From: Trichobilharzia szidati
Lineage: Eukaryota > Platyhelminthes > Trematoda > Strigeidida > Schistosomatidae
DNA: 64,000 nucleotides
Reading direction: 5' to 3'
Assembly: GCA_944472155.2 (NCBI GenBank)
Contig: OX235277.1
Location: 23,322,804 to 23,386,803, forward strand
In this document: positions 2,373 to 64,000 of the stretch, piece after piece
How positions within the stretch are numbered: the first letter of the stretch is position 1
Layout of the letters: every line of letters begins with the position of its first letter
Notes under the pieces: generated by a model
The model's input: the letters and a program-made list of their open reading frames with translations, nothing else
What the model was told of the DNA's origin: nothing
Databases searched by the model: none
Made by a program: the position numbers and the translations under genes

Positions 2373-2379
2373 TATAAAT
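2373..2379 (+). promoter_or_regulatory. TATA-like box of the micro-exon gene
   Basis: TATAAAT lies 51 nt before the ATG of exon 1, so initiation near 2403 would give a short 5' UTR. A TTTAACAG acceptor-like site ends 2 nt before the ATG, so a 5' cis exon or spliced-leader trans-splicing is an alternative. Inferred from position only. Confidence 0.4.
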
Positions 2380-2429: not shown

Positions 2430-2496
2430 ATGAAAGTTATTCCGTGCCTGCTTTTCTGCTTGTTCATCATGGTGATTTACACTGAAGATACCTCAG
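2430..2496 (+). CDS. MEG exon 1: signal peptide
   Basis: The ATG opens 22 codons: a basic start (MKV), a hydrophobic core CLLFCLFIMVIY, then polar TEDTS. The exon ends TCAG before GTAAGTT, a perfect donor, leaving one base (phase 1). The frame runs into TGA ten bases past the donor, so splicing is required. Confidence 0.8.
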
Positions 2497-5400
2497 GTAA
2501 GTTCTGATGTTTTTTGGTTTAATTTCTATATTGTATGAACGAGTTTTTGTATAATAATTCCTCTTAATAGCTGAATCTGTTTCATGAATGAACCCTTCGG
2601 CGGAAAGAATTCCCCTGTCACTGGTATTTACATGCAAGATTTTCGTATTATGAAAGGTCATGGCGCAATATAATCACGATTCATGAATAACACATAAGTA
2701 ATCTGACAGAAACAATTAGGAGTGCAGATAAAAATAAATGTTCTGAATGAAGTGCCAAAACAGTCACGTTTGAACGTCAACTCTCGCTAAAATTGTAATG
2801 ATATTTCACCTACGCGCAATATACTTGAATAGATAATTTAGACAATAATTTTAGTTTGTGTGCTGTGACATTTCAACTAAATCTAGTATATTTAGGGACA
2901 GAAGATCAGTTTTCTTATTCATGGGTGCTCATCAAGGGTAAATCAGTCACAATTTTACTGGAAATTTCTGTGTCATGCTCAATGAAGTGAGGTAAATGTG
3001 GAAGAAATGGTGTTGCATATATCATCAGAAACGAATCTCGTATTGACTATTGTTAACTGAGATCAGTTATGTTATCATTATTAACTGTATAATGATCCCA
3101 TTAGTGTATTGGAAATACAACTTTAAGATGTGTTTGTATAGGATGGTTTCACAACATTAAAGTCCATCGCTGATTTTTCATTAACGAGTCGTTTACGGTG
3201 ACTTTTGTTTGACAAAGATATTTTGGTATATTTATATGATTTATGTGACTAGGATACGTTGACTGGTACAACATCACATGATGAGCTACAACATCACATT
3301 GTGATAATAACAGCAACTTTTTCAAGGACATAAAACTTTGTTCTGAACCTTTTTCAGAGAAGAAAGACGAAGGTATTTAATGTTATTCAATTTACACTGA
3401 GCGTTTTAATTTGGTTGAATAGAAATAACTTGAAGCTTTTTGTTCTAGAGTTCATTTCTAAAAAGCTGCCTGAATCGGTTTCAGTGTTTCTTGTGCTTAA
3501 CTGAAATGGCATTAACTATATTAGGAATTTCCATCCTGATCGTTATTGTTTAGGACACATCAGCCTGAGGTGATGAGTATTTGGGTGGTGATGGTTCTTC
3601 ATTCAGTGCCTTAATTTAACCGTGGAGAATTCCAGACTACTTTGTTTGCAGTTAAACTGTAAGATGAAACAGTAAGAAACTGTTTCATCTGCAACAGTGC
3701 CATAAAGAAAATTAGCCTCACTTTGTTATTATCCCACGAGTCCCAATCGACCTGAAACTAATCCAGTCATTTCTTACTTTTTTTACGGTTAATGACATTT
3801 TATCATCTGTTGAAAGAAGTTGAAATATGCTTATCACATATTAAGTCCTGGTGTACTTAGTGAAAATTATCCATTTCTGACATTCTCAGATATGTGTTTA
3901 TACGGTTGTCCTAATGGAGCGAGTAGTCGAACCAAAGTCAATTTTTATTGGCAATTACAAACAACTACCTCCTCAATCAGGCGTTTTCAGTTACAAGTAA
4001 CCATCTTTTACAGTGATCTCCTTAATGACAATTTTTGTTGTCATTGTTGTTGAAAAATTACTTGCGCTTTGTCTTGGTGTATTGACAAAAGATCAAGAAG
4101 AAAAAGAGTTGTTTAGCATAGCATTCACGCGCTTTAGCTTAACGCATCTATTTAATTTTCCATTATAAGGGGCCGGTAAATCTGTGAAAACCGTGAAACT
4201 AACAAGATCTTTCGAAGTCTTATCAGTCAGACGTATTTTTCTTCGTATTAGTTTGTTTATTATATGTAACACACAGTGAAACAGTATTATTTACTGGATG
4301 ACGTTTCGAACAAAATTTATTGTTCATAATCATATCAGTTATAATCACACGAATTCAAAACTTGAGCTTTAAAGATTTTTACCCTCTCATATTTGTTGTA
4401 GGGGTAGTACAGTTTTTCAGATATCTGGGTGGACAGGTGTTGAAACATTTCTGTTACATGCACTTGCAGTTGATTTGACAAACAAAGCCTCTGTTATCAA
4501 TCTCTCCCTACACCCTGTGATATTAAATTTTAAAACTACCATCCAATTCCATGCTATTGTGTGGTTGTGTGTAACCGCATGTAGTGCTATAGCTGAACTA
4601 TTCTCTAGATTTCTTATCTTATTCAGGTCAACCAATCTAGATTTTGCTAGGTTTTTATGTTCAACCAGTTTGACTGCCCCTGTTCTACTAGTTCGACCTA
4701 TGTATTTGACCTGATAGTCATTCAAGCAGGGTATTACACAAACTAAATTGTTTTGTTTTAAAAGCTACACAGGATTCTTTAATCGACAAAGCTTGTTTCA
4801 AATTGAACTTGTGGATTTGAATGCCACTTTTATTCCTGCCTTGTTAAGAATTCTGCATAAGATTTCAGAGGTCACTTCCTGGTATGGAATTACTACTGAT
4901 GATTTAGATTGCTTACTGTTGATGTTGTCTTGCGCCCATTTGACTTTCATTTCTTCATTAATATTGTTATTATTATTATCACTATCACTACTATCATTCT
5001 TTATTTTATTTTTACATTTCCCTAAATATTTCTTGACAAATGTATCAGAGTAATTATTAAGTTTCAAAGCTTCTCTTGTATGTTTCACTTCCTGCCTTGG
5101 ATNNNNNNNNNNNNNNNNNNNNNNNNNNNNNNNNNNNNNNNNNNNNNNNNNNNNNNNNNNNNNNNNNNNNNNNNNNNNNNNNNNNNNNNNNNNNNNNNNN
5201 NNNNNNNNNNNNNNNNNNNNNNNNNNNNNNNNNNNNNNNNNNNNNNNNNNNNNNNNNNNNNNNNNNNNNNNNNNNNNNNNNNNNNNNNNNNNNNNNNNNN
5301 NNNNNNNNNNNNNNNNNNNNNNNNNNNNNNNNNNNNNNNNNNNNNNNNNNNNNNNNNNNNNNNNNNNNNNNNNNNNNNNNNNNNNNNNNNNNNNNNNNNN

Positions 5401-8400
5401 NNNNNNNNNNNNNNNNNNNNNNNNNNNNNNNNNNNNNNNNNNNNNNNNNNNNNNNNNNNNNNNNNNNNNNNNNNNNNNNNNNNNNNNNNNNNNNNNNNNN
5501 NNNNNNNNNNNNNNNNNNNNNNNNNNNNNNNNNNNNNNNNNNNNNNNNNNNNNNNNNNNNNNNNNNNNNNNNNNNNNNNNNNNNNNNNNNNNNNNNNNNN
5601 CACAATTGAAAACCTCTAATGTCATGCTGAAATCAGTACTTTGAGTATTGTGACCACAGGTAGTAATGATGGAAAATTCATTAGATCTACCGGGAGGATA
5701 AATTCTACTTTTATATGATCGCTATTTAATACATCCCGATATTACATCTTCATTATAAGCGATAAATATGTAAAGTGATAGAGGGAATTACATCATGTGA
5801 AGACCTTCTCAACGTTCACCAGTACAAATAAGTCAGAGTTTATGTTGTAATGAAAACGATGTTGACGGTGAAGAAAAGTATGTGTTCGACGACTCATTTC
5901 CGTAAGCTATACATTCGTTGTTATGTTAAACACGGAATTACTGAGAACAATCAGTTACTGGTCAATTTGTTCTAGACATTTCAATACTTAATGTATGATG
6001 CAATCTACCAAGGAATGAATAATCGGAAATTAGGAAAAGGAGGCAGAATTTCTGATGACCCAGAATGTGGTGAAATGACTCATGAATAAACTTGAATATA
6101 TTTATGGACTTGACGCTGTCTACTCAGCCAGTGCACTCAGTTTCATATGGACAACCAGACGAATAAATACACAATCAGATGGCAAAATACGGTATCTTAT
6201 GCTTAGCTGGATTGGTTGTCTGCCGCAGATATTGATGCGCGAGGTGGCTGACTGAAATGAATTCGCCAGAAATTTAGAAAGTTGGTTTCAAAGAATTTCC
6301 ACCTCACTGCCACCTATGAGCTAAAGGTTCGTGAGGACAATTTTCTTAGTAGCAGTTGCAGCTTTCAGTAAAGGAGGTATTTCCTTCTGAGTGGATACCC
6401 GCTCTCCAGTTGGCTTTCTTCTAGTGATTTCAATTCACTGTCTATCGTATCTTACGAACAAAGTTGTCGAATCCTTCAGCATAATATACGTACTAAGCTT
6501 TGCTTTTGGATCTGTGTGAAATAGCCATCGAAGTTTCGATATCGCGATCTTTAGCATAATAATTTGTCTTTTGATTGCATTAGTCATTAGGAAAATATTA
6601 CCAACGGGATGATTTGCATTGATCTAAATCGCATTCATAATCACATCGAAACTACTATGGCGAACATATTTTATTCAAGACGTCATTCAGCAAATAATAC
6701 TGAATGGCTGTTTGATACATGCAACAAGTAAATCTATAGTGAGTCATATGCTATCTGTGTGCCGCAGTGTTCAGTGAGCGTTTAGATCAGCATTTTATCC
6801 TCCTTATCTTCCTACTACAGTACGGTTCCTCAACGACGCTATATACGTCTCTCCAAATCTCCAATATACAAATTAATATCCTATAATGCCCTTTAAATTA
6901 TCTGGAATCCACACTTCAGGGAAGCAGTCACATGTCTTTTGCTGCCTGTGGACCATTAAACACTCTTGTGCTTTTAGTGAAAGATTATATAATGTGAGAA
7001 GCCCATTGACACCACAGCATGCAAAGTGCATAGCCTCTGATTCAAAGATCTTATTTTTGGTATGTTCAAGTTATTCGTCGTCTTGAGTTCAATCTGATAT
7101 CTGATGGCAACTGACATCGGTGATTCATGTCGTTAGAAAGGAATCCAATTCACTTGTTCACGTCTGTGTGTTTAATTCGGAAACAATTAGTTGCTGTATG
7201 CTTTCGGATCAATTTGAATCTGCATAATTCCCATGCATTTTAATATTAGTGAAGAATTACGATTCAGCTCATTGCTTAGTTAATTTTTTCTTTTATTCAG
7301 AGGATTTTTGTAAGTTAGAATTTTGAAATATTATGAAAGCCAGAATCCAGCAAATTCAGCACAAAACTTGGAATTGACTTGAATGACTAAGATAGGAATT
7401 TCCGAAATGTTTCAAGCTGATGAATCAGCCCATGATATTTCTCTGTTGTCTGATTAACTGATTTGTGGTGAGGACACCAATGTTTTCTGCTTTCGTTTAT
7501 TCACTGAAATAACTAAGAAGCATACGATATCCTGGTTGAAGGACATCAGTGCAACATCGATAATTCAATGTTAGAATGTTCAAGAAAAATTCTATGGAAA
7601 CTGAAGTTTACTCCATCCTTCCTTAGACCAAATATTAACTTTTATTTCCTCTTTTATAACGTTGATGAACTGATCAATGCATGTCTTATGCCTAATAATA
7701 GGCTGCATGACACTTCGGACATCCAACATGTATTTTTCCGTGTAATCAATGCTACAGTCATTTGATAACATGAAACATACAAGAAACCCTAATTAATGGA
7801 TCACACATTACTGGCTTTCAGTCGTCAAATTTACAGTTCAGTGTATAAGAGACTTTTATTTCTTATCAGACGTGATTTAGACGCAATGCCATCAGATGAC
7901 GCATGCAATTGTGTCGATTTTTAAACTGGTGCATATCCTATTTACTTCTGAAGATAAGCAGTGGATCAGGTTTCTATTTCTTGACGAATATATCTAAGTA
8001 TGAAATTCCCTGTATAGACAATTCCATGTTATATACTGTTTAATGAACTGTGAGGAGGTGCGTCAACGAAGAAGGATGTCTGCAACGCCGCATATCCATC
8101 TTCACCATCTCGGTAACTCAATCGCATTCGAGGTGTTTGCAGGGATCCATTTCTCATACTGACCATTCTGCATCCCTCCGTAGTCATATACGATTTCTTA
8201 TCCGATGATTTTAAAGATATCCAGACATACTTAATGTCTCCAGCTTTCCTTGATGTCTTTACTTTTCATGGATTATCCTCATTCAGAAAATAATGAAAGG
8301 AAAAGATTTATTTCAACGGAGACACCTTTTGACAGATTCATTTACTTAGCTGTACAATCGCATTGTGGGTGTGTACATTGGGATACGCGTCGAAAGACCA

Positions 8401-11400
8401 CTTTACCTACACGAGATGGTTGTTACTCCTTATAACATTTGTAAATTTTTAGAACACTTACTTAATTCCATACTTTGCTTCGTTTCCATGTGCATCCTAA
8501 TCACAACTCACTCAATAAACCATCCATCTTCCCAAGTAACGCTTATTCAAATTCTTTTATGTGCTGATTAGTATTAGTAACAGTTTTTGATTAAAACATA
8601 ACTGCAAAGCTGTCGCCAGTCTTCACCCTCCCTATTTACAATTTGATAACTCTTTATGTATTTGAAATGTCTTGACAGAATGAATTTGCCGAAGAGACTC
8701 TATTTTGACCTGCGCTATTCCAGATTATATTTGTTCAGCTTTAATTGCAGTTTACTTCTGGCTTCTGTGAAGTTCTTCCAAGTTGACCTGAAAATTTCTT
8801 CCATTAGATAATAATATATCACTCATTGAGTCCTCTTCTCGATTCCTTGTTCAGTAGGCTGCATTTCAACTTTCTTGTGTTTGAGATGACGTCTACTGTT
8901 CTCAAACATTGAAGACGGAAGCCTTTTAACACACTATGAGACTTCTGATGTCGTTTGCCAGCAGTCTGGCTTCATATCGTCTATTAGGAATTGTTGACAT
9001 AGTTTCGGGTCTAATCCAAGACTTTTCGCAGTTGTCCGGAGTAGTAATCTTTGTTTTGTGCATCAATGTAATTTATAGTATCTCGATGTTATACGCGTTG
9101 CATCTGAGTCTTAATGTCATTGATGGCTGCTTTTTCCTGAGTTAAGTTATCGACTCCACGCCTAACACTCATCTGGTTCCTGGCTTAATATCATATCACT
9201 TAAAAACTGATGAAGCTATTGATAAAAATATTCGTATAAATTATTTCATTGAAAACGCAACATAGTGAAGCAGTACCATTCCCTGAATAACGTCTGAAAT
9301 AATAGTCACGTTTCATAATATTATCAGAGGATATAATAAGACTGCATTGCGCTAATCCACAAGTCCAAAATATCCAATTTGTACACTCGCATTGATCAAA
9401 AGATGTCTGAAATATTATGTAATCCAGATGATAAGGATAACAATTCATTTAAATAGTTATGAAGAACAATTTGCTTATATTTTGAATGTTTTTCAATGCC
9501 ATATCTTCTTATATAGTGAATAGACGTGAGTGGTAGCTCTTACTTAATTCTATTATTTCTTCGCCTATGTGTTACAGTGATCCAGGTTTATTTAATGTAA
9601 AATAACTAGCAGTAGAGTATAAGTGACTGACAGTTTTAAGTAGTGCACGAAAGACTGAACAAATATTCAAAGTCAGTCGACTCTCAATACATATTTTTCA
9701 TTTGTAAATGCGAGATCAAATGTACTGTCAATAGTACAATGCAAAAGTTAAGGAATTGATGATTGGTAGATTTCTTTTGATTTACTATAATTTTTTCAAG
9801 CCGCAAGTACGTGCAAATTATCTGTTTTGAATAATGCTATCACTATGCCATGCACAGGTTATTATACATGAATAAGCCTAACAAGATTACAAGATTGTCT
9901 GCAAGAAAATTTTGTGAAGAAGAACACAGATGACGTATGAAAGCAAGAAGAAAATCAGTGAGCTGAAGAATGATCAAAGTTTATGCAGTAGTAATTATTC
10001 AGTGCCTGATATTCATTGGTCACCATATCTGCAGCAAAAGGTTACTTTGAATAAGTTCATAGTATGGTGATCAGCCTAATTAATGTGACACTGCTAGAGT
10101 CTCTTCTACACTTTCACTTTTCATATTCTAAGCGATGCTGGCTGTCAAGTTTTAAAATCGACCACAACTGAATTCCGCGTAAAACTGTTCTCCGACCAAC
10201 AGGAATGCAAAAATGTAACTATTTACTATACATCTGATCACGGAACTTTCAAACGAAGAGAGTTACTAAGAATAGAGATCTATAATTGCCATAACATTTC
10301 ATAAATTTGGAGTGTTTTGGAATGAAAATTTTTCTAGCTTTAAAAAACCACTTTATTCGAAGCTAAGTACAACATCCGCGATTTTAATAGTGAATCAATT
10401 TAATAAAAGTCATACAGAGAATATGCAATACGTGCCATGTCACCTTTGGACATTTTGTCGCTATCGATGGGAGGCAAATCAGACGACTAAACTCAGGAAA
10501 GCGTCTACTCTTCCGACCTATTTTTGCTTAAATTTAGGAGTCGTTTCCATTGTAGAAGTTGAAATAGTTAACTTAATACTTTGTACTATCAAATTATCAT
10601 CCATACTGTTTCATAATAATGTGTTCGAGGAAGGTATAACGAAACGATTCAGCAGTGTCTACTGGTTGGTGTTTCTGAAAAAAATATACCTTTTGTGATG
10701 ATATTAACAAATGGCGTGATATGATATGTAATTACACACTCCCACAATGTTCAACTTTTACACCGACATTATTCCAAACACGATATGAGTTTTCACATCA
10801 GCTACTAAATTTGAACAAGGCTTTCCATTATAAACCACAATAAACTACTGAGTCATGTTGAGTGTTTTCGGCCTTAATATAATCGCTTTAAGAATTGGGT
10901 CGTAAGTTGAAGTCCAAATTCACTTCTGATATTTCCACTGTAAAACAAAATAGTAGTCAATGTTTATTAATCACAAAATATTATTTTGGAAATGTGTTAA
11001 TAGATTACATTTGCGTAACATGACAGATAAGAATACAAATATAAGGACAAAACTTGAGCACTGTATAACACTGTGTGATTTTACCAAAATACTATTTTAT
11101 TCACAATGAAATAAAGACTACAAATTTTCAAGTGTTGGTTTGTAGGGATTTGATTGGTTACAGGATTTCATCATGAGCTGACATCAGTTAGAGAACCATT
11201 GGAAAACCTGAAGAGTACTGGACAGCTGTTTCGTCCTAGTTTGGGACTCTTCATCAGTACGCACCCACCGGGATTCGAACCCAGGACCTTCTGGTTACAG
11301 GTGGGTAGTCACCTGGGGTTCTAGTGAGAAGTCGTGACCAGTAGGGTGCAGCAGGTCGGGCGTGAGGACAAATACTCGCCGAAGACATTGGCTAGGGGTC

Positions 11401-14400: not shown

Positions 14401-17400
14401 ATCTGTTTCTCTGAGGAGATTTATTGGTTACTTCAAAGAAGAGCATTCACGATACAAACACTATTTAGTAAATTGAAAAATTAGATAAGTTTTTCAATCT
14501 TCGCCTCTTAAGTTACTTACATTTGCCTATTATCTTGGACTGGATTTTTAAGTGTCCCTTCACATATTCCCTTGTACTGCATACAGTTCGTCATTTTCTA
14601 CAGAATGACATAATGTCATTCAGACATGTGGTGATCAGCATTTGAAGCTAATATGTGCACTTCCTCTAAGTTTGCACTCACATGCGTTTCAAATGAAACT
14701 ACTTTTACTGAGTTACAGCCTCATGGGAAATACTTGAGATTTGTGCCCTAACTGACGGCAGAAATCATTCACATGTTCGGTTTTTTCAAAAAATATGGCT
14801 GAAAGAAACAGAAAGGTGCTTTTACGATCCTAGTATTGATGAACATGTCAAGGACTTAATATAAACCCTTTGGTCTACGAATACAGAGTGTTAGGGATGG
14901 GAGTGAAACTAAACAGGAATATGATTACAAGGTTCACCAATAGTTACCCTGTGAAGAATAATAGTTACACTATATCAGACAATCCATTTTATTCTTAAAG
15001 ACACATTCTATCCCACATTCCGGTCACAATTCATTTAACTAACATAATTCACAGTTTACACCAAACATATAATTTTTATTTTGTGTTTATCTCTCGTTCT
15101 CTTTCATTTCACTAATATTCTTATTTTCTCAACTTGAAATTTGCTTCACTAATCCAGAAGGCTTTGGTATGTTTATGTCCTGAAATTTCTTGTAGCACGG
15201 TATTTATTATGTGTCGCGCATTAGAAACTAATATCCAGAAATATTAAATCGGTTAGCGTAGATTACTCGCAACCTAAACTGGCACAGTGCATCCTTATGA
15301 TGTCTGATATGTGCGAAAAGTAGTAATAACATTTATTGATAATGGTGACAAATGCGGAACCTGACATAACTTTGACACTTTTCTGTTTCACATCAAGCAT
15401 TTCCTCAAATCAGCTAGTGTTCATCGGATAGGATTTACATATAACGAATACTTCATTTACTCTATTTATTCACACGTTAGCATAAAACAACGGTCTAGAT
15501 ATTTTGAGGCAAACTATTACTCAAAAAGACTTACTGGTCTTTGGAATGAGTCAAATTTACTACAAAAATACTCTCTGATAAAAGATGAAGTCGGAGAAGG
15601 ATCTCACTGTTTTTTCTGAGAAAATTTGCATTTTCTAGCTGATAACCCTAATAGTAAATATGTTTTCTGTTTCTACTCATATCTATTCATTTTGAAATAT
15701 AAGTGTGCTACCCTTTGGATCCTCTTTTTATGTAGATTAGTTTGTGTTAGAAATTATCCTGTATTTTTCTAAGAAACCATTAATGTGTGCACTGAATTCT
15801 ACCAACATCATATTGTCTCATTCAGGCTCCATGAGTAAGTAGAAGTGGACATTGAATTACACTGCCTGCATCCTTTATCGACACAGTAGCTTCTGTTTAT
15901 TTTTTAATAAAAGTGATTCTAAGTGAAGTACAAAATACGATAATTTATTTAAAATATTTGGGCTTATATATTAAGGTTTTCACTTCTTATTGTGAAGTTT
16001 ATTGTCTTTTCAGTGAAGGAGGACGCAAACACAATGAAAATCCTACTGAATAGGGGTTTTTGTTAAATTTAACAAGGTGGAACTAAGATGTCCTAATTAT
16101 ATACATGTATATGTATTTCATTTTGAATAAATCATTCCCAAGATATTGATTAATACAGTTTCAGAATAGTTTGCAACGAAGTATTAGGATACAGTTAAAC
16201 AGATGACTCTAACGCGCTGTACAGATTAGTGTTGAACATGAAACCTAGACGGACATTTCAGAATACAGACAATTTTACAATATCTAACCCATCTGTTCTT
16301 CCTCTCACTCCGAATATCTTAACCTCACCCACCTCAAGATGTTTGTCAATTTCCGTAAAATTAAATGAAAAAGCTTATTAACGTGTCTGGACACTTGAAT
16401 CCACTTAAGCATTAGTATATATAGTTCAGAGGAAACGCTATCCTCATATGTCTGCTGGGAGATGTTGAAATTGTGGAAATGTCGACTTACTCAGCTCTAA
16501 GCAAGACGGTATGTAGATAATTTCATATTGATGACACCTAATACACTATTGTTTATCACATAAGCTCATCGAAGAAAAATCACAAGAGTCTTAGTTTGGG
16601 CTCGGATGCCATGTTCTGCTTGTACAAAAATCAAAATGCTAATCCCCAAATGTGTTGATAAATTATAAACTGATACCATATGCGTTCATAAGTAAATGCT
16701 GGGTGCAAATGAAACAATGATTAAATAATCATGAGAACATACGTGTACTGGAAATCTGTGCCATGAATTCGAAGCAGAGCATTTCAAGCAGTGGAATATG
16801 CACAAATACTTCTATCAATCCAGATGAGGAAGGTGAGTTTCACATATGATCACTGAAAATATACAAAAGAGTACTGGAAGTTGTCCAGCAACAATGTATT
16901 CAGAGGTAGCATGAATACATATGACGACAATTCGAATCAAATTGACTCACTGGAAAAATGGTGTTCCACCTAAATTAATCGTCGATTTATATCATACCGC
17001 CTATTCCATCAATGATTAAGTCTATGTGACAAGAAAAAGCTTCACCAATGAAAGATATGCACATTATTCAAAACAAAAGGCATCATTTATTATATTCCAG
17101 CGGACACATACAGGTGTATAATGAATATCATTCCTTCAAATTTTTGAGAATACAAAATTGTTAAATTGGGTGGTATCGCATTTAGCATTTTTGTAAAGAT
17201 GCCTTACACGATAAGGCTGAGGCTGCCCCTATATTAATAAAAGAAGACGGATTCGATAATGTGACCAAATTTTCAGATATTTAATACTCTGGTTACTTCA
17301 TGAATCTACACATCCAGCAAAATACAATAACTGACATGCTTTTATGACAATTATGACTCAAATGGAGACTTAATAGGGCTTTCAGGGGAGCATATACATT

Positions 17401-20400
17401 TCAAAATCCTTTTTCTGTAAAGGATACAATTGGGCAAATTTCCCATACTTCGCTTCTGAAATCACCTGCTTTTTTGCAATTCATAATTATGTTCCTCGGA
17501 AACTTTCGGTGTGTTGAGATATATGCTCCTAGTTAATGTGAATTGATGACATTTTAGGACTTAGATGAAAGCAAGTAGTGAATAGCAATATTTCTATGTA
17601 TGGTACTGATCATCTGGGTACGAATACATTCCCAATAGATCATGCAAACACTTTGATTCAATTTTATATGAAGCTTAAAATATTTCAGAATTTCAAATGT
17701 TAAATCAAGAAATGTTTTACTCGTTGTACTTCTTTGAGCCTGAGTATATATATGCAGGTTTCTGTACAGATGATTTACGACTATCAATGAATAGTGCCAT
17801 TATTTCGGCTGATATACTTATTACAGTAGTATACAAACTCCTAGCCAGTTCTCTTTCATGCTTAGGAAATAATTCACCAGTCTAGTGAAGCTACATTTTC
17901 AATTGTTCATCGGTTAGCTAGTTTCTATGGATTTTGCGAAATCATTCAATTAAGGTTTTCTGGCCACAATAACTGTTAAATGTTGTTTAGTGTTGAAAAT
18001 GATAAGTCGTAATACAAGATGACTAGTTTTAAACATCGTGTCTCATCATTAAACGACAACACCGACAGTGACACTGGAAACGGGAATCGCTTTACCTTTA
18101 TTAGAATCATTTAGCATCAGTGAACTAACCAGGTATCGAATCTACTCCTTTTTTAAAAGGTAAGCATAACAACGACTGAATTGAGCTGATATAGGGATCA
18201 GTATATAGAACAGTGTTTCAGTAGAACTAGGCGTTTTCTCTCCTACAGAATAAATTTTTCGCAGTACGAATAAGGTAATGCTTCGAGACTGAATTCATGC
18301 CGTAAGGCAATGGAATCAATTTTGAGAATTATACTTCTGAGTGTTTTCTGTCTCCATTCTCTTATTTGTATCCATCATACGTTGTAGTACTATTCACTTT
18401 CGATTCATTCCATTGAGTTTCTTGTTTTGCATCAACTGGGCAGATCTGAGTATGTTTAAATTCAGAAATCTTCATAGTGTATAATTCATTGTATGATGTG
18501 GATGACTGATGAAAAATTCCAAGAAAATGAAGCTCGTGCTATCAATTTTTTGCAATACAACTCCGCAGAATATGCTCACCTGTTACGTTTTTCATGTACA
18601 ACATGTGGTAATACAATTTCGTCAGAATAATATTAAACGTGTCACTTGGCATATGTCTGACATCGCTTAAGTTTCATATCAAGCGGTTTCTTAGTTCAAC
18701 TTATATTGATCAGACTAAACTTTGAATGATGGACACAGTGTACCCGAATCCAGTTGAATGCAGCCTCAAAATACATGGATCTCCATATCTGCCTTTATTA
18801 ATTGCTGTTGCAGTAATTCTTAGCAAGTGAATTCACTGATTCAGTATGCGAGGAAGGTTTATGTCCCTTGGTTGCTTTTCAAGCAGTTTTGTTTTTTAAA
18901 TAAATTTTCAATTCAGTATATTGTAGTTGATCAATTAATTTATAGGATATCTTCAAGTTGGTTACCAAATCACAAAAATGATTGTTAATATGAAAATTAG
19001 TGAGGGACACACCTTGTATTCATTGGACAGTTGTGTAACTTTGGTTGCAGGCAGGTGCTAAGAAGGTGACTGCTCATAAGTCTTTCCAAGAATTTCATCC
19101 ACAAATCAAAGAAGATGAACAAAGGAACGAAAATAAAGAAACCTTATTTCTCTCAAGAAATATTGGGATGATTCTTATTAGATTCGAATATACACATATA
19201 CGCAACCAGCAACCAGCATCAAGTCAACACCGACGGTATTTCAGGGATGAAGAAATTGTTGTGTCCTTGACTTGTAAAGCGAGGCAGCAGCGTCTACGCA
19301 AAGAAACTCCGGAATGACTATCTGAAAGCTGAGATGTGAATACAAATTGTTCAATAACCTGAAAGTGGTATGCACATCTACATACAAAGCAGGAAACAAA
19401 CACTGAATATTTAACACAGACATCAAATCACCACTTCCTCTATGAGGCATCAACAACAGCATTCCCATAAGCCTGTCGCCAACTTCATCCAAATATGCTC
19501 TTGATCGGTAGTGAATTTGAGAACGTCGTCCAGAATGGTTAATTGGCAAAGAAACCTTTCATCAAACGAAAGAATAACCTATTATTATCATTATTGTTCC
19601 CTTGTGTTCCTAGTGGAACAAAGGGCTTCAAATGCACCTCTCCACTTGCTTCTGTCTTCTGCTGTACTTTTCACCTTCATCCATGTTAGTCCATACTGTT
19701 TCAGCTCCTCTTCACACGATCTCCATGTCGCCTTGTGTATATCCGTGTGTTTGAACACACTGCCACCAATCACCAAATCATTAAAGGCGCAGAAGTCTGA
19801 GAAGAGTTCACCATTGTCGTTCATTTCACCGAGGGCCTCGCGACCCATGGTGAGTTCTCTTCCTGTATTGTCCCCTCCCAGTTTCGCATTCATATCGCCC
19901 ATTAGGATTTTGTTATCGGCATTTGAGACGTTGTCCATTACTGTTTGTAGTTGTCTGTGGAAGGCCTCCTTCTTCTCTTGTTCTGGGACGTTTGTAGGCG
20001 CATAGCATTGAATGATTGTAACCTTCCTTCCTTTTGAGTTGAACCTGGCTGTCATTATCCTGAAGGAGATTGGTTCCCACTGCATGAGAGCCTTAGCCGC
20101 TGTTAGTGACATCATGATGGCTACTTCCTCAGTGTGCTCGTGATCGTCCTCTGGGTGACCGGAGTAGATTATTGTCTCTCCACTTGATAGTTGGCACCTT
20201 CCGCATCCATTCCATCTGCTCTCACAGATTCCCAACACTTCTATTTTAAATCTCCTCATTTCTGTGGCTACCTGAACAGCCTTTCCAGTTTCATACATTG
20301 TGCGAATATTCCACGTCCCCATCCTTATTTTTGCTTTCATCGAAAGAAGGCACATCGGCTGACTGGCTTCTCGGAGACTTTCACCAGCCTGCGTCATTTC

Positions 20401-22942
20401 ACTTCCCCGATTCCGGCGAAAAATAAGGTTATTGTGTGTATTGTTAGAATTTTGAATATATTTGTGCGTTGAAGTTTCTGTAGCGAATCGGTTAAGTATT
20501 GATGGTGGAGTTTTTGGCACCACGCCCCAACCCTCCCTCTTTATCCGGGCTTGGGACCAGCTAGAAAACTAGTGAGCTAGTAATCTAGGCGAGGCTAAAG
20601 AAGTACCTAACTCTAAACAAATACTCACAACGAAATATAATAACTTGGCTGCATGCCACGAAGACAATTGAATAACGTCAAACGTCAAACCTTCAAAATG
20701 ACACCTGAGTTTGAAACGATGAGTAAAGTGTCTAGATTTGATGTTGAAGATACGACATGATATAGAAACAAGAAAATATGAGCAAATGAAGAACCGGCTT
20801 TTAATGACTGCAGGCCAATAAGTGAAATATGGGCTTGGTACTGAAGCCGTTTGTTCCACTTGGAATTCAAAAGACGAATAAAAATAACGTCCGCATGTAA
20901 AATTATTGTCAATATTACTAGGGCTATGTATTTTATTGGACCTTATTAAGTTCTTTTCACCATCCTGTGATCACATAATAGTTGTTGTATGCTCATTGAT
21001 GTGTATGCTAATTCTTACATTTTGAAACCTGTTTGTGACTCTCACTCAACTGTTTGCATTTTCAAATGTATCTCTTGTTTTCAGAAGGATTATGTAAGTA
21101 GAATATTTCTCTGTTATGATGATAAACAGTAACTTCACAACAAAATGTAATGTCGACAGCACAACATGCATCATTATGGGAAAGATATACTAATATTTGA
21201 GCATAAAACGCATTGGAGTACAAATATTCCTGAACTAATAATCCATAGACTATTGTCGTCATTAATTGAGCCATCAAGAATTATGTTTCTCCTCCCATAG
21301 GGGCTCAGTAAAGTTTAGGACTGAACAGTGTGTACATTAGGTTACTGGATATTTATTTAATAAATGACCATCTAGTTAGAGTGTAATATTTTGATGATTT
21401 TGGAGGAGAGACATACGCTAATACAAATATTCTTCCCGTTTAAAGACAGCACAAGAAATATTGGATTTCTTCAATGAACGAAATATTCCCATATTGAGTC
21501 ATAAGAAAGAGGCACAAACAGCGAAGAAAATTTTCTTTTCGACGATTCATTTTCATGAGCTGTACAATCGTAATTATAATTAACAAAGAAATCTTTAGAC
21601 CAATCAGATACTGGTAAATTTTGTCCTTGGAAAATTGTATTACATAATGTAAGGTGTAAGAAGGGATGACTAATTGTAAGTTAGAAAGGAGACAGAAGTT
21701 GGCATGACGTAATAAGTGTGAGATAGTGAATAATCAATAATCTCGTGTAAAATGGACAGGAACTAGTGGAAAGGCTATAAAGTGTTTTTGTATAAAATAT
21801 GTATGAAAAACAATGTTATTAATAAACAGTAATAGAGTGGTAATAAAATGTGGATGATGGGGACAAAATGATAAAAATATTAATAAAATAAAATAATAAT
21901 GGTAATAATAGTGAACTTACATAATAAAGGAAGGAAGCAAAATTGTGACAAGAACTTTACTCTGGCCATGGTAAGGCTAGAGAATGTATGTATCGCTTTT
22001 GTATGCAGAGGTCCGGTTTTAGATCTCGAATAGCTAATGCTTCAGCTATGTACAGATGGCGAATCCGAAGTCCCTTTGTACGATATTGAGGGACCCTGTG
22101 TAACACTGTGAAGCATTCATGGGGGGGTGGATTTATAATCAGTGCACTTCTATTAAATGCACTGTTGTTTATCACTCGGGTGCCCAGGGTTTCACCACTT
22201 ATCGATTAGTCATCTATGAAATTATTCATGCATTTATTCTGTGTGAAAAACATTCATCATCGTCTTCTTTGTTATTCTGAACGTGATTCTTGATGGATTT
22301 TATTGATATGTTATGTCACTTAAGTGAAGGAATGTAAGTCTGCATACCGTCTTACGACGGAGAATCTACTGTTTGCCCCACAATCTCTCAGATTTGTAAA
22401 TAACATTGTTTAATATGATAACGAATATCTTTGTGATGTAAGCGATTCGATAATAACGCAGAATGAAATAGTGTTAACACCAATGATCAATACTTTTTCA
22501 TGGTGAGGTGTACTCATTTTAATTCGCCTAATTTTTAAAATCCGATTATTACCGGCCTCAAAAATATACGTTATCATTTAAGTTAAGGAGAGTAAGTGAA
22601 TTTTAAAGTTTCTGAATTTGAATATCTTGGATAGCTGCTTAATTTCTCTGGTTCGAATGTAACATCAATTGGTATACTCAACAGAGTTCTCTCAGTTCAG
22701 CTTATAGAATCAAGTCTAAGAATATCGTATTTGCTACTGAAGTGAGGTCAAAATCCTCTATAACAATAACCTACGCTTTCCACGTTTCCTATTATCAATA
22801 AATCCCTATCTTATTTGTAGTCAAGGAGCCAACGCCAACGAGTGAGTGAAGAGTCAGATCGTTTTATTGATACGCCTACTTTCAGTTTTCACATTTACTT
22901 TATTTAGAGAAACCAAGCATCAACTCCAATATTTTCGTTTGA
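2430..22942 (+). CDS. Micro-exon gene encoding a small secreted peptide (whole span)
   Basis: Proposed 15-exon gene: a signal-peptide exon, 13 internal micro-exons (6-21 nt, all multiples of three, all phase 1 to phase 1) and a terminal exon with stop and AATAAA. The joined frame has no stop and gives about 79 residues: signal peptide MKVIPCLLFCLFIMVIY, then an acidic/basic stretch with EKKDEEDFLNRRFKK, and a C-terminal part containing NEEDLKGLLKEFKEIKEPT. The mature part is charged and probably helical and has no cysteine. Known schistosome MEGs have this layout and encode secreted variable peptides through exon skipping. Any exon here can be skipped without losing frame. I do not recognise which MEG this is, if any described one. 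Introns hold a Penelope element, a hammerhead SINE and an RTE copy. Individual exons vary in certainty. Confidence 0.75.
2896..2937 (+). CDS. Possible optional MEG exon (42 nt)
   Basis: Phase 1 to phase 1 and open (TEDQFSYSWVLIK), between TATATTTAG and GTAAAT. The acceptor tract is weak. It would fit between exons 1 and 2 without disturbing the frame, but may be chance. Confidence 0.25.
3358..3372 (+). CDS. MEG exon 2 (15 nt)
   Basis: AGAAGAAAGACGAAG lies between a strong acceptor (GAACCTTTTTCAG) and GTATTT. With the leading G from exon 1 it reads EKKDE and ends in phase 1. The donor is less than ideal. Confidence 0.65.
3664..3690. repeat. Short perfect hairpin in MEG intron
   Basis: GATGAAACAGT and ACTGTTTCATC form an 11-bp perfect inverted repeat around a 5-nt loop. 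Function unknown. Confidence 0.5.
4294..4338 (-). mobile_element. Hammerhead-like relic near the Penelope-element 3' end
   Basis: On the minus strand CTGA and GAAACGTC flank a hairpin-forming stretch, just downstream of the Penelope-like coding region. Penelope-like elements are known to carry hammerheads with a very short stem III. Here CUGANGA is disrupted (CTGATATGA), so I call it a relic. Confidence 0.4.
4417..5102 (-). mobile_element. Penelope-like element: RT end plus GIY-YIG endonuclease, decayed
   Basis: Reading the minus strand from the gap, the upstream part has the spacing of a Penelope RT C-terminus: VVIPYQEVTSEILCRILN followed by IKVAFKS. After frame changes near 4800 and 4750 comes LVCVIPCLNDYQVKYIGRTS, then VEHKNLA, SAIALHAVTHNH and ITEALFVK. 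That order (Cys-containing first motif, YIG-x-T, His-rich middle, late Glu) is the GIY-YIG nuclease domain of Penelope-like retroelements. The reading frame has at least two frameshifts and an in-frame stop at 4798-4800, so it is inactive. The element runs into the N gap, so its RT core is not visible. It sits in an intron of the micro-exon gene, on the opposite strand. Confidence 0.85.
5103..5600. other. Assembly gap (498 N)
   Basis: Unresolved bases. The left edge is inside the Penelope-like element, so the gap probably holds its reverse transcriptase core or a collapsed repeat. Confidence 0.99.
5815..6060 (+). repeat. Dispersed repeat R1, diverged copy
   Basis: The stretch from GGTGAAGAAAAGTATG through the ACTGGTCAATTTGTTC region aligns by eye with 21470-21710 and with both arms of the 50.8-51.2 kb fold-back. 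It is the most diverged copy. I cannot assign it to a known element class. Confidence 0.5.
7301..7309 (+). CDS. MEG exon 3 (9 nt)
   Basis: AGGATTTTT sits between an excellent acceptor (ATTTTTTCTTTTATTCAG) and a perfect GTAAGT donor. In phase 1 it reads EDF. Confidence 0.7.
7822..7842 (+). CDS. Possible optional MEG exon (21 nt)
   Basis: Phase 1 to phase 1 and open (VKFTVQ after the joined codon), between TGGCTTTCAG and GTATAA. The donor is weak. Listed only as an optional exon. Confidence 0.2.
9517..9525 (+). CDS. MEG exon 4 (9 nt)
   Basis: TGAATAGAC lies between ATCTTCTTATATAG and a perfect GTGAGT donor. After the T left by exon 3 it reads LNR. Without it, exon 3 joined directly to exon 5 would make a TGA stop, so the frame needs this exon or a similar one. 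Confidence 0.65.
11126..11626 (+). mobile_element. Inverted-pair tRNA-like SINE with hammerhead (copy 1)
   Basis: A forward SINE copy (about 11440-11626) contains tRNA-like A and B boxes (TGGTATACGAGCTC; GGTTCGAATCC), then a hammerhead, then a unique tail. A reverse copy of the same 3' half lies at about 11160-11305, so the unit is a long inverted repeat with about 180 bp between the arms. A 14-bp direct repeat (TAAAGACTACAAAT) flanks the whole unit at 11112-11125 and 11627-11640. The inverted pair therefore entered as one insertion by target-primed integration. It sits in a MEG intron. The family resembles the schistosome Sm-alpha SINE; the match is by structure, not by search. Confidence 0.85.
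11524..11569 (+). ncRNA. Complete hammerhead ribozyme core in SINE copy 1
   Basis: Stem I strands GTACTG (11524-11529) and CAGTAC (11564-11569) pair perfectly. The core CTGAAGA matches CUGANGA. Stem II is GTCC/GGAC around CAAACTA. GAAA is followed by the short self-complementary stem III ACAG/CTGT, and the predicted cleavage site is after C11563. All invariant core bases are present. The mirror copy in the left arm (11224-11260, minus strand) has C3 changed to A and should be dead. Confidence 0.8.
12222..12440 (-). CDS. Possible minus-strand exon of unknown gene
   Basis: A superb minus-strand acceptor (TTTTCATTCTCTTCTGACAG) is followed at once by 72 open codons in phase 0, then TGA. The peptide is rich in Asn, Ser and Cys (for example VNYSNSNCNNNF and NSVSCENCSPYIK). 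The candidate exon at 13289-13380 ends in phase 0 and could join it. No poly(A) signal is seen close by. It may be a chance ORF inside the MEG intron. Confidence 0.22.
   Translation of the reverse strand: MNYSNSNCNNNFILKCLSSKIQNSVSCENCSPYIKSTIKHSHRISDNGELYFLKHNSVIHEMPYSSSSSRVQ
13289..13380 (-). CDS. Possible minus-strand exon (92 nt)
   Basis: On the minus strand 92 nt are open from phase 1 to phase 0, between ACCCTATACCGTTAG and a perfect GTAAGT donor. The pieces AAHKRVNEYMHTEVN and LSLMHCLNVFRL are not recognised. It pairs in phase with 12440-12222 but may be chance. Confidence 0.22.
14056..14064 (+). CDS. MEG exon 5 (9 nt), in tandem unit 1
   Basis: GATTTAAAA lies between TTGTTAATCCAG and GTATGT. 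In phase 1, after the C of exon 4, it reads RFK. It is the paralogue of exon 6 in the next unit, with homologous flanks on both sides. Confidence 0.7.
14605..15490 (+). repeat. Tandem intron/exon unit 2
   Basis: Second copy of the 12750-14390 block, including its own 9-nt exon with the same acceptor context and GTATGT donor. Confidence 0.75.
15158..15166 (+). CDS. MEG exon 6 (9 nt), in tandem unit 2
   Basis: AAGGCTTTG lies between TTCACTAATCCAG and GTATGTT. In phase 1 it reads KGF. The exon differs from exon 5 at several positions while keeping length, phase and both splice sites, as expected if the exon is under use. Confidence 0.7.
15639..15653 (+). CDS. MEG exon 7 (15 nt)
   Basis: CTGATAACCCTAATA lies between TTGCATTTTCTAG and GTAAAT. 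In phase 1 it reads ADNPN. The donor is moderate, so it is less sure than its neighbours. Confidence 0.45.
15826..15834 (+). CDS. MEG exon 8 (9 nt)
   Basis: GCTCCATGA lies between ATTGTCTCATTCAG and a perfect GTAAGT donor. In phase 1 it reads SSM after exon 7, or GSM after exon 6. Confidence 0.65.
   Translation, partial: AP
16014..16066 (+). CDS. Alternative MEG terminal exon A
   Basis: An excellent acceptor (TTTATTGTCTTTTCAG) precedes a phase 1 frame that reads MKEDANTMKILLNRGFC after exon 8 and stops at TAA 16064-16066. An AATAAA follows at 16126-16131. Its opening TGAAGGAG resembles the later KE exons (22325, 22583, 22821). It would give an isoform of about 60 residues ending in a cysteine. 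The alternative is that it marks the true end of one gene, with the later exons belonging to a paralogue whose first exon I cannot find. Confidence 0.55.
16126..16131 (+). promoter_or_regulatory. Poly(A) signal after terminal exon A
   Basis: AATAAA 60 nt after the stop codon of the 16014 exon. Confidence 0.5.
16824..16832 (+). CDS. MEG exon 9 (9 nt)
   Basis: ATGAGGAAG lies between ACTTCTATCAATCCAG and a perfect GTGAGT donor. In phase 1 it reads NEE after the A of exon 8. Confidence 0.6.
18340..18720 (+). repeat. Tandem intron/exon unit 3 (partial)
   Basis: Weaker but visible similarity to unit 2: GTATGTTTAAATTCAGAAAT against GTATGTTTATGTCCTGAAAT after the exon, and TTTCATATCAAGCGGTTTC against TTTCACATCAAGCATTTC further on. 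It contains MEG exon 10. Confidence 0.5.
18444..18449 (+). CDS. MEG exon 10 (6 nt), in unit 3
   Basis: ATCTGA lies between ATCAACTGGGCAG and GTATGTT. In phase 1 it reads DL. Six bases alone would be weak evidence. The shared flanks with exons 5 and 6 support it. Confidence 0.5.
   Translation: M
19241..19549 (-). other. Open frame of 102 codons, origin unknown
   Basis: A minus-strand frame directly beside the 3' end of the RTE copy reads protein-like (SYRSRAYLDEV-type start, then GDRLMGMLLLMPHRG). No splice sites frame it clearly and no family is recognised. It could be a decayed exon or chance. Confidence 0.2.
19570..20598 (-). mobile_element. Internally deleted RTE-like retrotransposon with both ends
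   Basis: The 5' end (CCTCGCCTAGATTACTAG on the minus strand) matches that of the RTE at 62780. The 3' end closes with a short AATAATGATAATAATAG repeat, usual for RTE. Between them one frame of 310 codons (19591-20523) holds an AP-type endonuclease: MGTWNIRTMYETGK, CESRWNGCGR, KILMGDMNAKLGG. At the KATW motif it jumps directly to the C-terminal end of the polyprotein (RSCEEELKQYGLTW). The rest of the endonuclease and the whole RT are missing, but the frame is kept. The first real ATG lies inside this frame, about 40 codons in. Confidence 0.85.
21085..21093 (+). CDS. MEG exon 11 (9 nt)
   Basis: AAGGATTAT lies between TATCTCTTGTTTTCAG and a perfect GTAAGT donor, among the best splice pairs in the window. 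In phase 1 it reads KGL. Confidence 0.7.
21301..21311 (+). CDS. Alternative MEG terminal exon B
   Basis: An excellent acceptor (TATGTTTCTCCTCCCATAG) is followed in phase 1 by WAQ and TAA. AATAAA is at 21359-21364. It would end the peptide just after KGL. The exon is so short that it could be a decoy acceptor. Confidence 0.4.
21359..21364 (+). promoter_or_regulatory. Poly(A) signal after terminal exon B
   Basis: AATAAA 48 nt after the stop codon of the 21301 exon. Confidence 0.4.
21441..21710 (+). repeat. Dispersed repeat R1
   Basis: Nearly identical to both arms of the 50.8-51.2 kb fold-back (shared AGGCACAAACAGCGAAG, CCAATCAGATACTGG and GTAAGAAGGGATGAC-type runs) and diverged from 5815-6060. 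No coding or terminal structure recognised. Confidence 0.7.
22325..22333 (+). CDS. MEG exon 12 (9 nt)
   Basis: TGAAGGAAT is followed by a perfect GTAAGT. The acceptor ends CACTTAAG, unusual because of the A before AG. After the T of exon 11 it reads LKE, the first of three consecutive x-K-E exons. Confidence 0.55.
22583..22591 (+). CDS. MEG exon 13 (9 nt)
   Basis: TTAAGGAGA is followed by a perfect GTAAGT. The acceptor is TATCATTTAAG, again with AAG. In phase 1 it reads FKE. Confidence 0.5.
22821..22841 (+). CDS. MEG exon 14 (21 nt)
   Basis: A strong acceptor (CTATCTTATTTGTAG) and a perfect GTGAGT donor flank 21 nt that read IKEPTPT in phase 1. It starts with the same (N)AAGGAR pattern as exons 12 and 13. 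Confidence 0.7.
22908..22942 (+). CDS. MEG exon 15, terminal
   Basis: A strong acceptor (ACATTTACTTTATTTAG) leads in phase 1 to KKPSINSNIFV and a TGA stop. No donor follows. AATAAA lies at 23103-23108, giving a 3' UTR of about 180 nt. Confidence 0.65.
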
Positions 22943-23102
22943 GCACCACGAATTCTTTTAAAAAGTGTGCTAACATTGAAAAGACTCAAAATTAGGTGAT
23001 ACCATGAAACGTGACACATGAACTTAGGTTACTATTTGCAGTTGTAGATGTCTAATCGCAGTGTAATAAGTTTTTATAACAACTGAGTTGAGCCATTCAG
23101 CC

Positions 23103-23108
23103 AATAAA
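23103..23108 (+). promoter_or_regulatory. Poly(A) signal of the MEG, full-length form
   Basis: AATAAA 160 nt after the exon 15 stop. Confidence 0.5.
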
Positions 23109-25365: not shown

Positions 25366-25369
25366 GTTT

Positions 25370-25550
25370 TTTTTATTTACAGCTTGATTCCACACTGTAT
25401 TTTCAGTACAAGTGTGGAACTGTCAGCATGGATATCGGTAGCCCAAATTCAGGCCGACCATAGATATCGGGTGTGCGCCGGCAGAGGATCGAACCCCGGA
25501 CCATGTGCATGATCGGCGAGAGTCCTAACCACTGTGCTGTCCTGTACCAC
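25370..25550 (-). mobile_element. tRNA-like SINE, family B, copy 1
   Basis: On the minus strand: A box region (AGTGGTTAGGACTCTCGCC), B box (GGGGTTCGATCC), end of the tRNA-like part GGCGCAC, then a body with GGGCTACCGATATCC and a tail ending TGTGGAATCAAGC plus A-rich sequence. The tail matches the 3' end of the LINE at 59070. Confidence 0.8.
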
Positions 25551-25559
25551 TGTGTAGAT

Positions 25560-62724: not shown

Positions 62725-62779
62725 GGCCTGTTTTTGTTTGTTCTTTTTTATTTGGTGTGTCTCAGTGGCGTATTTAACC

Positions 62780-64000
62780 TCGCCTAGATTACTAGGTCAC
62801 TAGTATTCTAGCCGGTCCCAAGCCCGGATAAAGAGGGAGGGTTGGGGCGTGGTGCTAGCAACTCCACCCCCAAAACTTAACCAAATTGCTACTAAAACTT
62901 CAACGCACAAATATATTCAAAATTCTAAAATTACAAACAATAGCCTTATTTTTCGCTGGAATCGGGGAAGTGAAATGACACGGGCTGGTGAAAGCCTTCG
63001 GGAAGCCAGTCAGCCGATGTGCCTTCTTTCGATGAAAGCGAAAATAAGGATGGGGACGTGGAATGTTCGTACAATGTACGAAGCTGGGAAGGCTGCTCAG
63101 GTAGCCGCAGAAATGAGGAGATATAAAATAGAAGTGTTGGGAATCTGCGAGAGCAGATGGAACGGATGTGGAAGGAGCCAACTATCAACTGGAGAGACAA
63201 TAATCTACTCCGGTCACCCAGAGGACAATCACGAGCACACCGAGGGAGTAGCCATCATGATGTCACCAACAGCGGCTAAAGCTCTCATGCAGTGGGAACC
63301 AATCTCCTCCAGGATAATGACAGCCAGGTTCAACTCAAAAGGAAAAGTGCTACGCGCCTACAAACGCCTCAGAACATGAGAAGAAGGAGGATTTCTACAG
63401 TCAACTACAAACAGTAATGGACAACGTCCCAAAGAGCGATATCAAAATCCTGATGGGCGACATGAATGCGAAACTGGGAGGAGACAATACAGGAAGAGAA
63501 CTCACCATGGGTCGTGAGGCCCTCGGTGAAATGAACGAAAATGGTGAACTCTTCTCAGACTTCTGCGCCTTCAATGATTTGGTGATTGGTGGCAGTGTGT
63601 TCAAACACAGGGATATACACAAGGCAACATGGATTTCACCAGATGGACACACCAAAAACCAGATAGACTTCATTTCAATCTCAAGGAAGTGGAGACGGAG
63701 CCTACTGGACACAAGATCGAGGAGAGGAGCAAATGTGGGTTCAGACCACTATCTAGTACAAGGGACATTCAAGGTGAAGCTGAAAGCCTCGAGGATACCT
63801 GGGGATAGGCCACAATGCAAGTTCAACACTCGCAAACTGAAGGACACAATCACACAGGACATTTTCACTGCAACTGTCAGAGCAAAGCAGGAAACACTAC
63901 GTGGCACCACTGAGGAATCATCCGTGGAAGACCATTGGAACTCTCTGAAGGTAATTTTCAACGAAACGTGCTCAACGGTTTTAGGAAGAAAGAAGAAACA
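62780..64000 (+). mobile_element. RTE-like retrotransposon, 5' half, runs off the window
   Basis: The same 5' end as the 20598 copy (CCTCGCCTAGATTACTAGG, then GGATAAAGAGGGAGGG). The endonuclease part has MGTWNVRTMYEAGKAAQV and CESRWNGCGR. A small deletion near 63343 shifts the frame where the other copy has KVTIIQCYAP. Further on are KILMGDMNAKLGGDNTG, DGHTKNQIDFISISRKW and GSDHYLVQ, open to the window end. Confidence 0.9.

What the first reader, a model, noticed from the sequence alone, without database searches (positions are those of the whole stretch)
2430..23108. An undescribed-looking micro-exon gene invisible to ORF calling
Thirteen internal exons of 6-21 nt, nine of exactly 9 nt, all phase 1 to phase 1, lie in order on one strand between a signal-peptide exon and a terminal exon with AATAAA. 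Most carry GTAAGT, GTGAGT or GTATGT donors and good pyrimidine tracts. Joined, they keep one open frame of about 79 residues even though each junction splits a codon; dropping exon 4 would give an immediate stop. Splice sites and frames are seen directly. That schistosome MEGs have this architecture is established knowledge. That this is a MEG, and possibly a new one, is inference.
Basis: partly seen in the sequence, partly recalled or inferred. Interest (0 to 1): 0.92.

Follow-up and report, generated by a model that had tools for sequence, protein, structure and literature searches.

The report
Fluke micro-exon gene from large array
This is a schistosome-type gene predicted from tiny exons and backed by its sister copies, one shortened member of a row of closely related genes whose tiny exons change faster than the introns around them, which suggests a diversifying secreted-protein family rather than a lone oddity.

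Summary
The micro-exons are real. On the + strand of 2430-23108 there are 8 strict acceptor-N9-donor sites; 0 of 1000 simulated sequences reach that. I support eleven internal exons (one of 15 nt, eight of 9, one of 6, one of 21), not thirteen; all are open only in phase 1, giving 71 codons, not 79. The gene is one of at least 27 paralogues in a 1.11-Gb genome, 26 on contig C7 over about 4 Mb and one on C3. In 24 of 28 3' places, four 9-nt exons keep length and AG/GT in all 95 exon copies, while their letters differ 2.5 times as much as intron. The signal-type exon is conserved. This is the anatomy of a schistosome micro-exon gene (MEG) family under probable diversifying selection. The window's copy is atypical: a piece of a middle block matches in the other 26 genes and not here, where 498 N stand; in gene g2 that block holds about 15 more micro-exon candidates. 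The kind is known; such an array was not seen in the papers searched. Expression, skipping and named MEG family are untested.

The parts
2373..2379 (+). TATAAAT, promoter-like, 51-57 nt before the start codon
   Evidence: kept in 3 of 4 distant exon-1 relatives fetched (the three on C6; the C3 one reads CATAAAT)
2430..2496 (+). Exon 1, hydrophobic signal-type leader, 67 nt, ends in phase 1
   Evidence: 27 places at 84-100% identity, the window included; pi 0.022 in 8 copies
3358..3372 (+). Micro-exon 2, 15 nt, donor GTATTT
   Evidence: length and donor kept in 7 of 7 paralogues; AG acceptor kept in 6 of 7, g1 having lost a base there
4051..5102 (.). Interspersed-element-like stretch in intron 2, running up to the N run
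   Evidence: 80-95% to paralogues g1, g3, g5 and g6; its minus-strand ORF 4417-4764 has no Pfam hit
5103..5600 (.). 498 N at the place where sister genes have a middle block
   Evidence: N run; distances; block piece in 26 other genes
7301..7309 (+). Micro-exon, 9 nt
   Evidence: splice sites and length kept in A, B and C
9517..9525 (+). Micro-exon, 9 nt
   Evidence: kept in A, B and C
11976..11984 (+). Micro-exon, 9 nt, letters differ strongly in B and C
   Evidence: kept in A, B and C
14056..14064 (+). Micro-exon, 9 nt, most variable of 3093 nine-base windows in the segment
   Evidence: 23 copies, all 9 nt, AG/GT invariant
15158..15166 (+). Micro-exon, 9 nt; its surroundings are 69% like those of exon 14056 (tandem exon duplication)
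   Evidence: 24 copies; self match 13941-14137 / 15043-15239
15826..15834 (+). Micro-exon, 9 nt; stop in phase 0 in 24 of 24 copies
16824..16832 (+). Micro-exon, 9 nt
   Evidence: 24 copies
18444..18449 (+). Micro-exon, 6 nt, identical in A, B and C
21085..21093 (+). Micro-exon, 9 nt; donor reads GTTAGT in B
   Evidence: kept in A, B and C
22821..22841 (+). Micro-exon, 21 nt
   Evidence: kept in A, B and C
22908..23108 (+). Terminal exon: 10 complete codons, TGA 22940-22942, AATAAA 23103-23108
   Evidence: acceptor kept in A and C, shifted by 2 in B with frame kept; in C the stop lies three codons further on (frames of B and C read by eye)

Best explanation
The locus is a schistosome-type micro-exon gene (MEG), one of at least 27 paralogues, nearly all in one array. 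A conserved promoter and signal-type exon send the product into the secretory path (inferred). The mature part is assembled from cassettes of mostly three codons, all phase 1 to phase 1, so most cassettes can be dropped without changing frame. The family diversifies by copying whole genes, by duplicating exon-plus-intron units inside genes, and by fast amino-acid change confined to the micro-exons. The likeliest use is a pool of variable secreted peptides facing the host (antigen variation, or binding to varying host targets). Shown here: predicted exon structure backed by paralogues, frame, copy number, faster change in exons than in introns. Inferred: transcription, secretion, skipping, host-facing role. 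The window's copy has lost the middle block, or its assembly omits it.
For: Excess of 9-nt exons on the gene strand only (68 against 2 over ten pieces; simulation). Phase 1 alone is open: 0 of 11 window micro-exons have an internal stop in phase 1, 3 of 11 in phase 0, 4 of 11 in phase 2; over four exons in 23-24 copies 1, 25 and 37 of 95. AG/GT diversity 0.000 at these four; exon diversity 0.300 against intron 0.119, 0 of 100000 random draws as high. Diversity at codon positions 1, 2, 3 is 0.289, 0.409, 0.202; 36 nonsynonymous and 4 synonymous one-step codon differences, 10% synonymous against 19% expected. Other paralogues: three disjoint pairs, exon 21/246 against flank 116/2832, Fisher p 0.0024. 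Signal-type exon pi 0.022. 27 of 27 exon-1 places pair with a 3' part on the same strand.
Against: No transcript was examined; every exon is a prediction backed by paralogues. Only exon 14056 is extreme; the other three rank 114, 123 and 238 of 3093 windows. Third codon positions (0.202) also exceed intron, so part of the acceleration could be mutational. The codon-step count is small and copies share history. Among 15 pairs of g1-g6 one reverses the trend and one has no exon difference. One copy (L051) has a phase-1 stop in exon 15826 and g1's exon-2 acceptor is damaged, so some copies may be broken or skip those exons; 5 of 78 possible forward junctions in the window's model make a stop. No cell type, stage or protein was tested.
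Confidence: 0.88

Rival explanations
1. The window's copy is a decayed or internally deleted, non-functional remnant, although the family itself is a working MEG family. (Compatible with the best explanation for the family.)
For: A 601-base piece of the middle block is found in 26 other genes, 6-10 kb after their exon 1, and not in the window nor on any other contig (paired by hand). Exon 1 to the 3' part is 11.4 kb here against 32.8-62.8 kb in the other 26.
Against: All 12 junction codons and 11 micro-exons are open and splice sites are intact; cassettes of whole codons can be lost without breaking frame. The junction lies inside 498 N, so it may be an assembly gap or a withheld stretch.
Confidence: 0.35
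2. The exon-specific variability is targeted hypermutation or micro-conversion from a donor pool rather than selection on the protein.
For: In exon 14056 the change stops sharply at the exon edges (most variable of 3093 windows), and third positions are raised too (0.202 against 0.119 in intron).
Against: Position 2 is the most variable (0.409); synonymous steps are fewer than expected (4 of 40 against 19%); the ATG codon of 15826 is fixed in 24 of 24 copies and the phenylalanine codon of 15158 is TTT in 23 and TTC in 1; no indel in any of the four exons while 782 of 3023 intron windows hold one.
Confidence: 0.12
3. Chance: decoy splice sites picked by eye in AT-rich sequence.
For: AT-rich DNA offers many AG..GT pairs; with a looser donor nearly every length from 3 to 39 occurs on both strands.
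Against: Length-9 excess on one strand, and conservation of length, phase and sites across paralogues.
Confidence: 0.01

Closest known systems
Schistosoma mansoni micro-exon genes (PMC10526429 section 5 part 1; PMC4350168 and PMC7653826, passages)
   Same: Signal-type first exon, many symmetric micro-exons, long introns, groups of paralogues, hammerhead elements nearby, faster change in the mature part than in the signal peptide.
   Different: PMC10526429 says that most S. mansoni micro-exons are 15 bp; here 9 nt dominates. The largest family counts in the part of Table 1 of PMC4350168 that I saw are 15 (MEG-25) and 14 (MEG-2), in clusters of up to 6 under a rule of at most 50 kb between neighbours; here 26 genes lie in about 4 Mb with a median exon-1 spacing of 104 kb, so they are more numerous but not all within that rule.
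MEG-3 (Grail) family
   Same: A 9-bp micro-exon after the signal peptide, duplicated beside an SM-alpha element, is reported for MEG-3.1 (PMC8293314, passages).
   Different: No sequence comparison was made; membership is unknown.
MEG cluster of the tapeworm Hymenolepis microstoma (PMC7653826, passages)
   Same: Ten MEGs in one region, expanded by tandem duplication, with a shared N-terminal motif.
   Different: Another class of flatworm, a smaller cluster and another leader (by eye).
MEG-8.2, lytic oesophageal-gland protein (PMC12998952, abstract)
   Same: Same gene class.
   Different: No resemblance was tested; of 27 complete codons in the window's micro-exons 13 are charged and none is Cys.

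Membership tests
Micro-exon gene (definition in PMC7653826, passages) | At least 7 exons; micro-exons (<70 nt, divisible by three) at least half of them; a run of at least 4 | tested here: met
   13 predicted exons, 11 of them consecutive micro-exons, supported by paralogues
Micro-exon gene | Symmetric exons in one phase, frame open across junctions | tested here: met
   phase 1 throughout, 0 of 12 junction stops; 1 stop in 95 exon copies
Micro-exon gene | N-terminal signal peptide | tested here: inconclusive
   hydrophobic 22-codon leader seen directly and conserved; no signal-peptide predictor was run
Micro-exon gene | Alternative splicing of the micro-exons | not testable with these tools
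   no transcripts; 10 of 11 single skips and 73 of 78 forward junctions stay open
Micro-exon gene | Mature part evolves faster than the signal peptide | tested here: met
   exon 1 pi 0.022 in 8 copies against 0.215-0.495 at four micro-exons in 23-24 copies; the two copy sets differ
A named MEG family | Protein similarity to its members | not tested
Schistosomatidae as source organism | Marker proteins nearest to schistosomes | tested here: met
   one 67-residue 28-kDa GST exon: seven 28-kDa GST chains at 108.7-111.4 bits, sigma-class GST 2wb9 at 38.6 bits (species of the chains recalled); S. japonicum 26-kDa GST finds exons at 60-90%

The most novel reading that the evidence does not exclude
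The array is a genomic antigen-variation store made of three-codon cassettes: 27 genes with up to about 25 micro-exons each, where selection rewrites single cassettes, intragenic duplication adds new ones, and frame-neutral skipping combines them, so that one worm can secrete a very large set of related peptides behind one leader. It would be the largest and most 9-nt-dominated such store known to me.
Probability: 0.35. Interest if true: 0.82.

Novelty: new member of a known kind. Interest (0 to 1): 0.62.

Why it matters
MEGs are hard to annotate because their exons are too small for gene finders (PMC7653826, PMC10526429 say so). Here conservation of splice sites and phase among paralogues, with fast-changing exons between slowly changing introns, finds and supports them from genome sequence alone. 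The introns give an internal yardstick for the background rate, so diversifying selection can be measured exon by exon. An array of at least 27 genes in what is probably a schistosomatid outside the genus Schistosoma would show that large MEG expansion is not confined to the human schistosomes, and gives a test bed for the idea that micro-exons exist to make protein variants.

Tried and rejected
My first splice scan crashed before the minus strand, and a weight-matrix scan was too strict, because micro-exon ends rarely carry the usual exonic donor bases; the pattern scan replaced them. Promoter and terminator scanning was not run. Candidate exons rejected: 15639-15653 (sites lost in B and C) and 19051-19065 (stop in phase 1). 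Undecided: 10035-10040, 18105-18119, 11894-11920, 6768-6773. In one search, nine rows whose splice sites were lost in the partner were dropped before the count, and alignments under 250 bases or with fewer than 80 flank columns were left out; candidates were defined by splice pattern alone, so some are false and dilute the effect. Aligning the window's 3' exons to g1-g6 failed; by the distances those 26-kb pieces stop short of the 3' block. The idea that exon 1 alone had been moved by a transposable element was dropped once the 3' part was found 33-63 kb downstream in the sister genes. Of 40 exon-1 matches scored (of 42 candidates) the 13 under 80% identity (ten on C6, one each on C3, C593, C472) were left out of the 27. 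The 46 matches were merged by hand into 28 places. Four of these 28 places were not fetched for the alignment. L054 and L055 were fetched and not analysed.
Full report
What was checked. A pattern scan (pyrimidine-AG, N nucleotides, GTRAGT or GTATGT) over lengths 3-39 gave, on the + strand of that stretch, eight hits of length 9, all with at least 9 of 15 pyrimidines upstream, and no other length more than once at that setting; 1000 Markov-1 sequences gave a mean of 0.13 and a maximum of 2. With a threshold of 8 of 15, the window beyond 23108 has none on its + strand and two on its - strand. Eleven micro-exons form an in-order chain from exon 1 (2430-2496) to the terminal exon (22908). No micro-exon has an internal stop in incoming phase 1, three of eleven do in phase 0 and four in phase 2; none of the 12 junction codons is a stop; the model has 71 codons.

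The family. The window lies at G000:C7:23322804-23386803 of a genome of 1.11 Gb in 907 contigs. A 141-base query around exon 1 has 40 scored matches, 27 of them at 84-100% identity: 26 on C7 between 19.60 and 23.55 Mb (median spacing 104 kb) and one on C3. These counts are lower bounds, because only the best candidates are scored. A 3.1-kb query from the window's 3' half (13900-17000) gives 46 matches, which I merged by hand into 28 places, 27 on C7 and one on C3. All 27 exon-1 places pair with one of these on the same strand; one 3' place has no partner. Thirteen more distant exon-1 matches lie on C6, C3 and two small contigs; of the four that I fetched all keep the exon length and the GTAAGT donor, three of four keep TATAAAT, and the three from C6 have ATA in place of the start codon with an in-frame ATG two codons on.

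Paralogue support for the exons. Three 3' parts (A 97%, B 82-86% and C 78-88% over the aligned pieces, short ones aside) keep splice sites and length at all ten 3' micro-exons. At the terminal exon of B the acceptor has moved by two bases and one base is missing, so the frame is kept; in C the stop lies three codons further on (frames read by eye). Exon 2 keeps its length and donor in 7 of 7 paralogues and its acceptor in 6 of 7. Twenty further segments were fetched; with A, B, C and the window 24 of 28 places were aligned over 13900-17000. At the four 9-nt exons there, AG and GT do not vary, each of the 95 exon copies is exactly 9 nt (one piece does not reach exon 14056), and exon diversity is 0.495, 0.247, 0.215 and 0.244 against 0.065-0.128 in the flanks. 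Exon 14056 is the most variable of 3093 nine-base windows; the others rank 114, 238 and 123, so the effect is extreme in one exon and moderate in three. Mean exon diversity of 0.300 was reached by 0 of 100000 random sets of four intron windows; without 14056 the mean is 0.235 and 137 of 100000 reach it. Indels occur in 782 of 3023 intron windows and in none of the four exons.

Frame and selection. In those copies incoming phase 1 meets one stop in 95 (15826 in L051), phase 0 meets 25 and phase 2 meets 37; exon 15826 has a phase-0 stop in 24 of 24 copies. Diversity by codon position is 0.289, 0.409 and 0.202. One-step codon differences at the eight complete codons are 36 nonsynonymous and 4 synonymous (10% against 19% expected, ratio 2.2); the sample is small. 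In six other paralogues g1-g6, over 15 pairs, exon differences are 134/768 (17.4%) against 858/9035 (9.5%) in flanks; one pair reverses the trend and one has no exon difference. Three disjoint pairs give 21/246 against 116/2832, p 0.0024. Exon 1 is conserved (0.022; upstream 0.027; intron 1 0.052; exon 2 0.071; 8 copies). The contrast between leader and mature part agrees with what PMC4350168 (passages) reports for MEGs between Schistosoma species.

The window's copy is atypical. In the other 26 genes the exon-1 to 3' distance is 32.8-62.8 kb; here it is 11.4 kb. A 601-base query from the middle block of gene g4 matches in each of the 26 other genes, 6-10 kb after exon 1 (paired by hand), and neither in the window nor on any other contig. 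In g2, compared with as many of the five other fetched genes as align, that block holds about 15 further micro-exon candidates by my reading of the conserved list, mostly of 9 nt; a complete gene would then have about 28 exons. The other genes were not read for this. The junction falls within the 498 N at 5103-5600; I cannot tell an assembly gap, a withheld stretch and a deletion apart.

How it grows. Exons 14056 and 15158 sit in copies of one 200-base unit (69%), and g1 and g6 hold internal repeats of 200-400 bases at 85-92%. So genes gain material by internal duplication as well as by whole-gene duplication; whether each repeat in g1 and g6 holds an exon was not tested. Two type I hammerhead ribozymes lie inverted between 11215 and 11569; hammerhead-bearing SM-alpha and Sm elements are reported as enriched around S. 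mansoni MEGs (PMC4350168, PMC8293314, passages).

Organism. A 28-kDa GST exon of this genome scores 108.7-111.4 bits with seven solved 28-kDa GST chains and 38.6 bits with the sigma-class chain 2wb9, which I recall as Fasciola. S. japonicum 26-kDa GST matches exons at 60-90%. With a genome nearly three times the size that I recall for Schistosoma, a schistosomatid outside that genus, perhaps a bird schistosome, is likely; that is inference.

What is known. MEGs, their symmetric micro-exons and the idea of variation by skipping are established (PMC8293314, PMC4350168, PMC7653826 and PMC5825161, passages; PMC10526429, section 5 part 1). Bird-schistosome counterparts of MEG-4 and MEG-8/9 are reported (PMC5825161, passages). 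MEG-8.2 lyses host cells (PMC12998952, abstract). Searches for MEGs with symmetric exons, with Trichobilharzia, with Fasciola or trematode genome expansion, for Schistosomatidae genome assemblies, for a leader string and for MEG tandem arrays showed no account of an array like this in the titles, abstract starts and passages that I saw; this does not show that none exists. PMC9187692 was searched for bird schistosomes and held nothing of use. I file the gene as a new member of a known kind, unusual in the number of copies, in the dominance of 9-nt exons and in how sharply variation stops at the edges of at least one exon.

Noticed in passing
window 11215-11260 (-) and 11524-11569 (+): Two type I hammerhead ribozymes in inverted orientation inside an intron of the gene, in SINE-like copies by eye.
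   Followed up: partly
window 59819-61282 (-), 61183-62796 (-), 62804-63379 (+), 19591-20568 (-): Non-LTR-retrotransposon-like ORFs: reverse transcriptase domain in the first, endonuclease hits just under their cut-offs in the second, no Pfam hit in the last two, which I judged by eye.
   Followed up: partly
G000:C7 21.95-22.54 Mb: Six neighbouring genes of the array all in minus orientation, beside runs in plus orientation, suggesting an inversion within the array.
   Followed up: no
L011 (far end of the g1 piece): Nearly perfect tandem repeat with a period of about 399 bases at g1 24517-26000 (99.3-99.8%), overlapping matches to the window's hammerhead region 11123-11299.
   Followed up: no
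L056, L057, L058 (C6) and L059 (C3): Distant exon-1 relatives with the same exon length and donor; the three on C6 have ATA at the start-codon place. Possibly a second, older MEG group on C6.
   Followed up: partly
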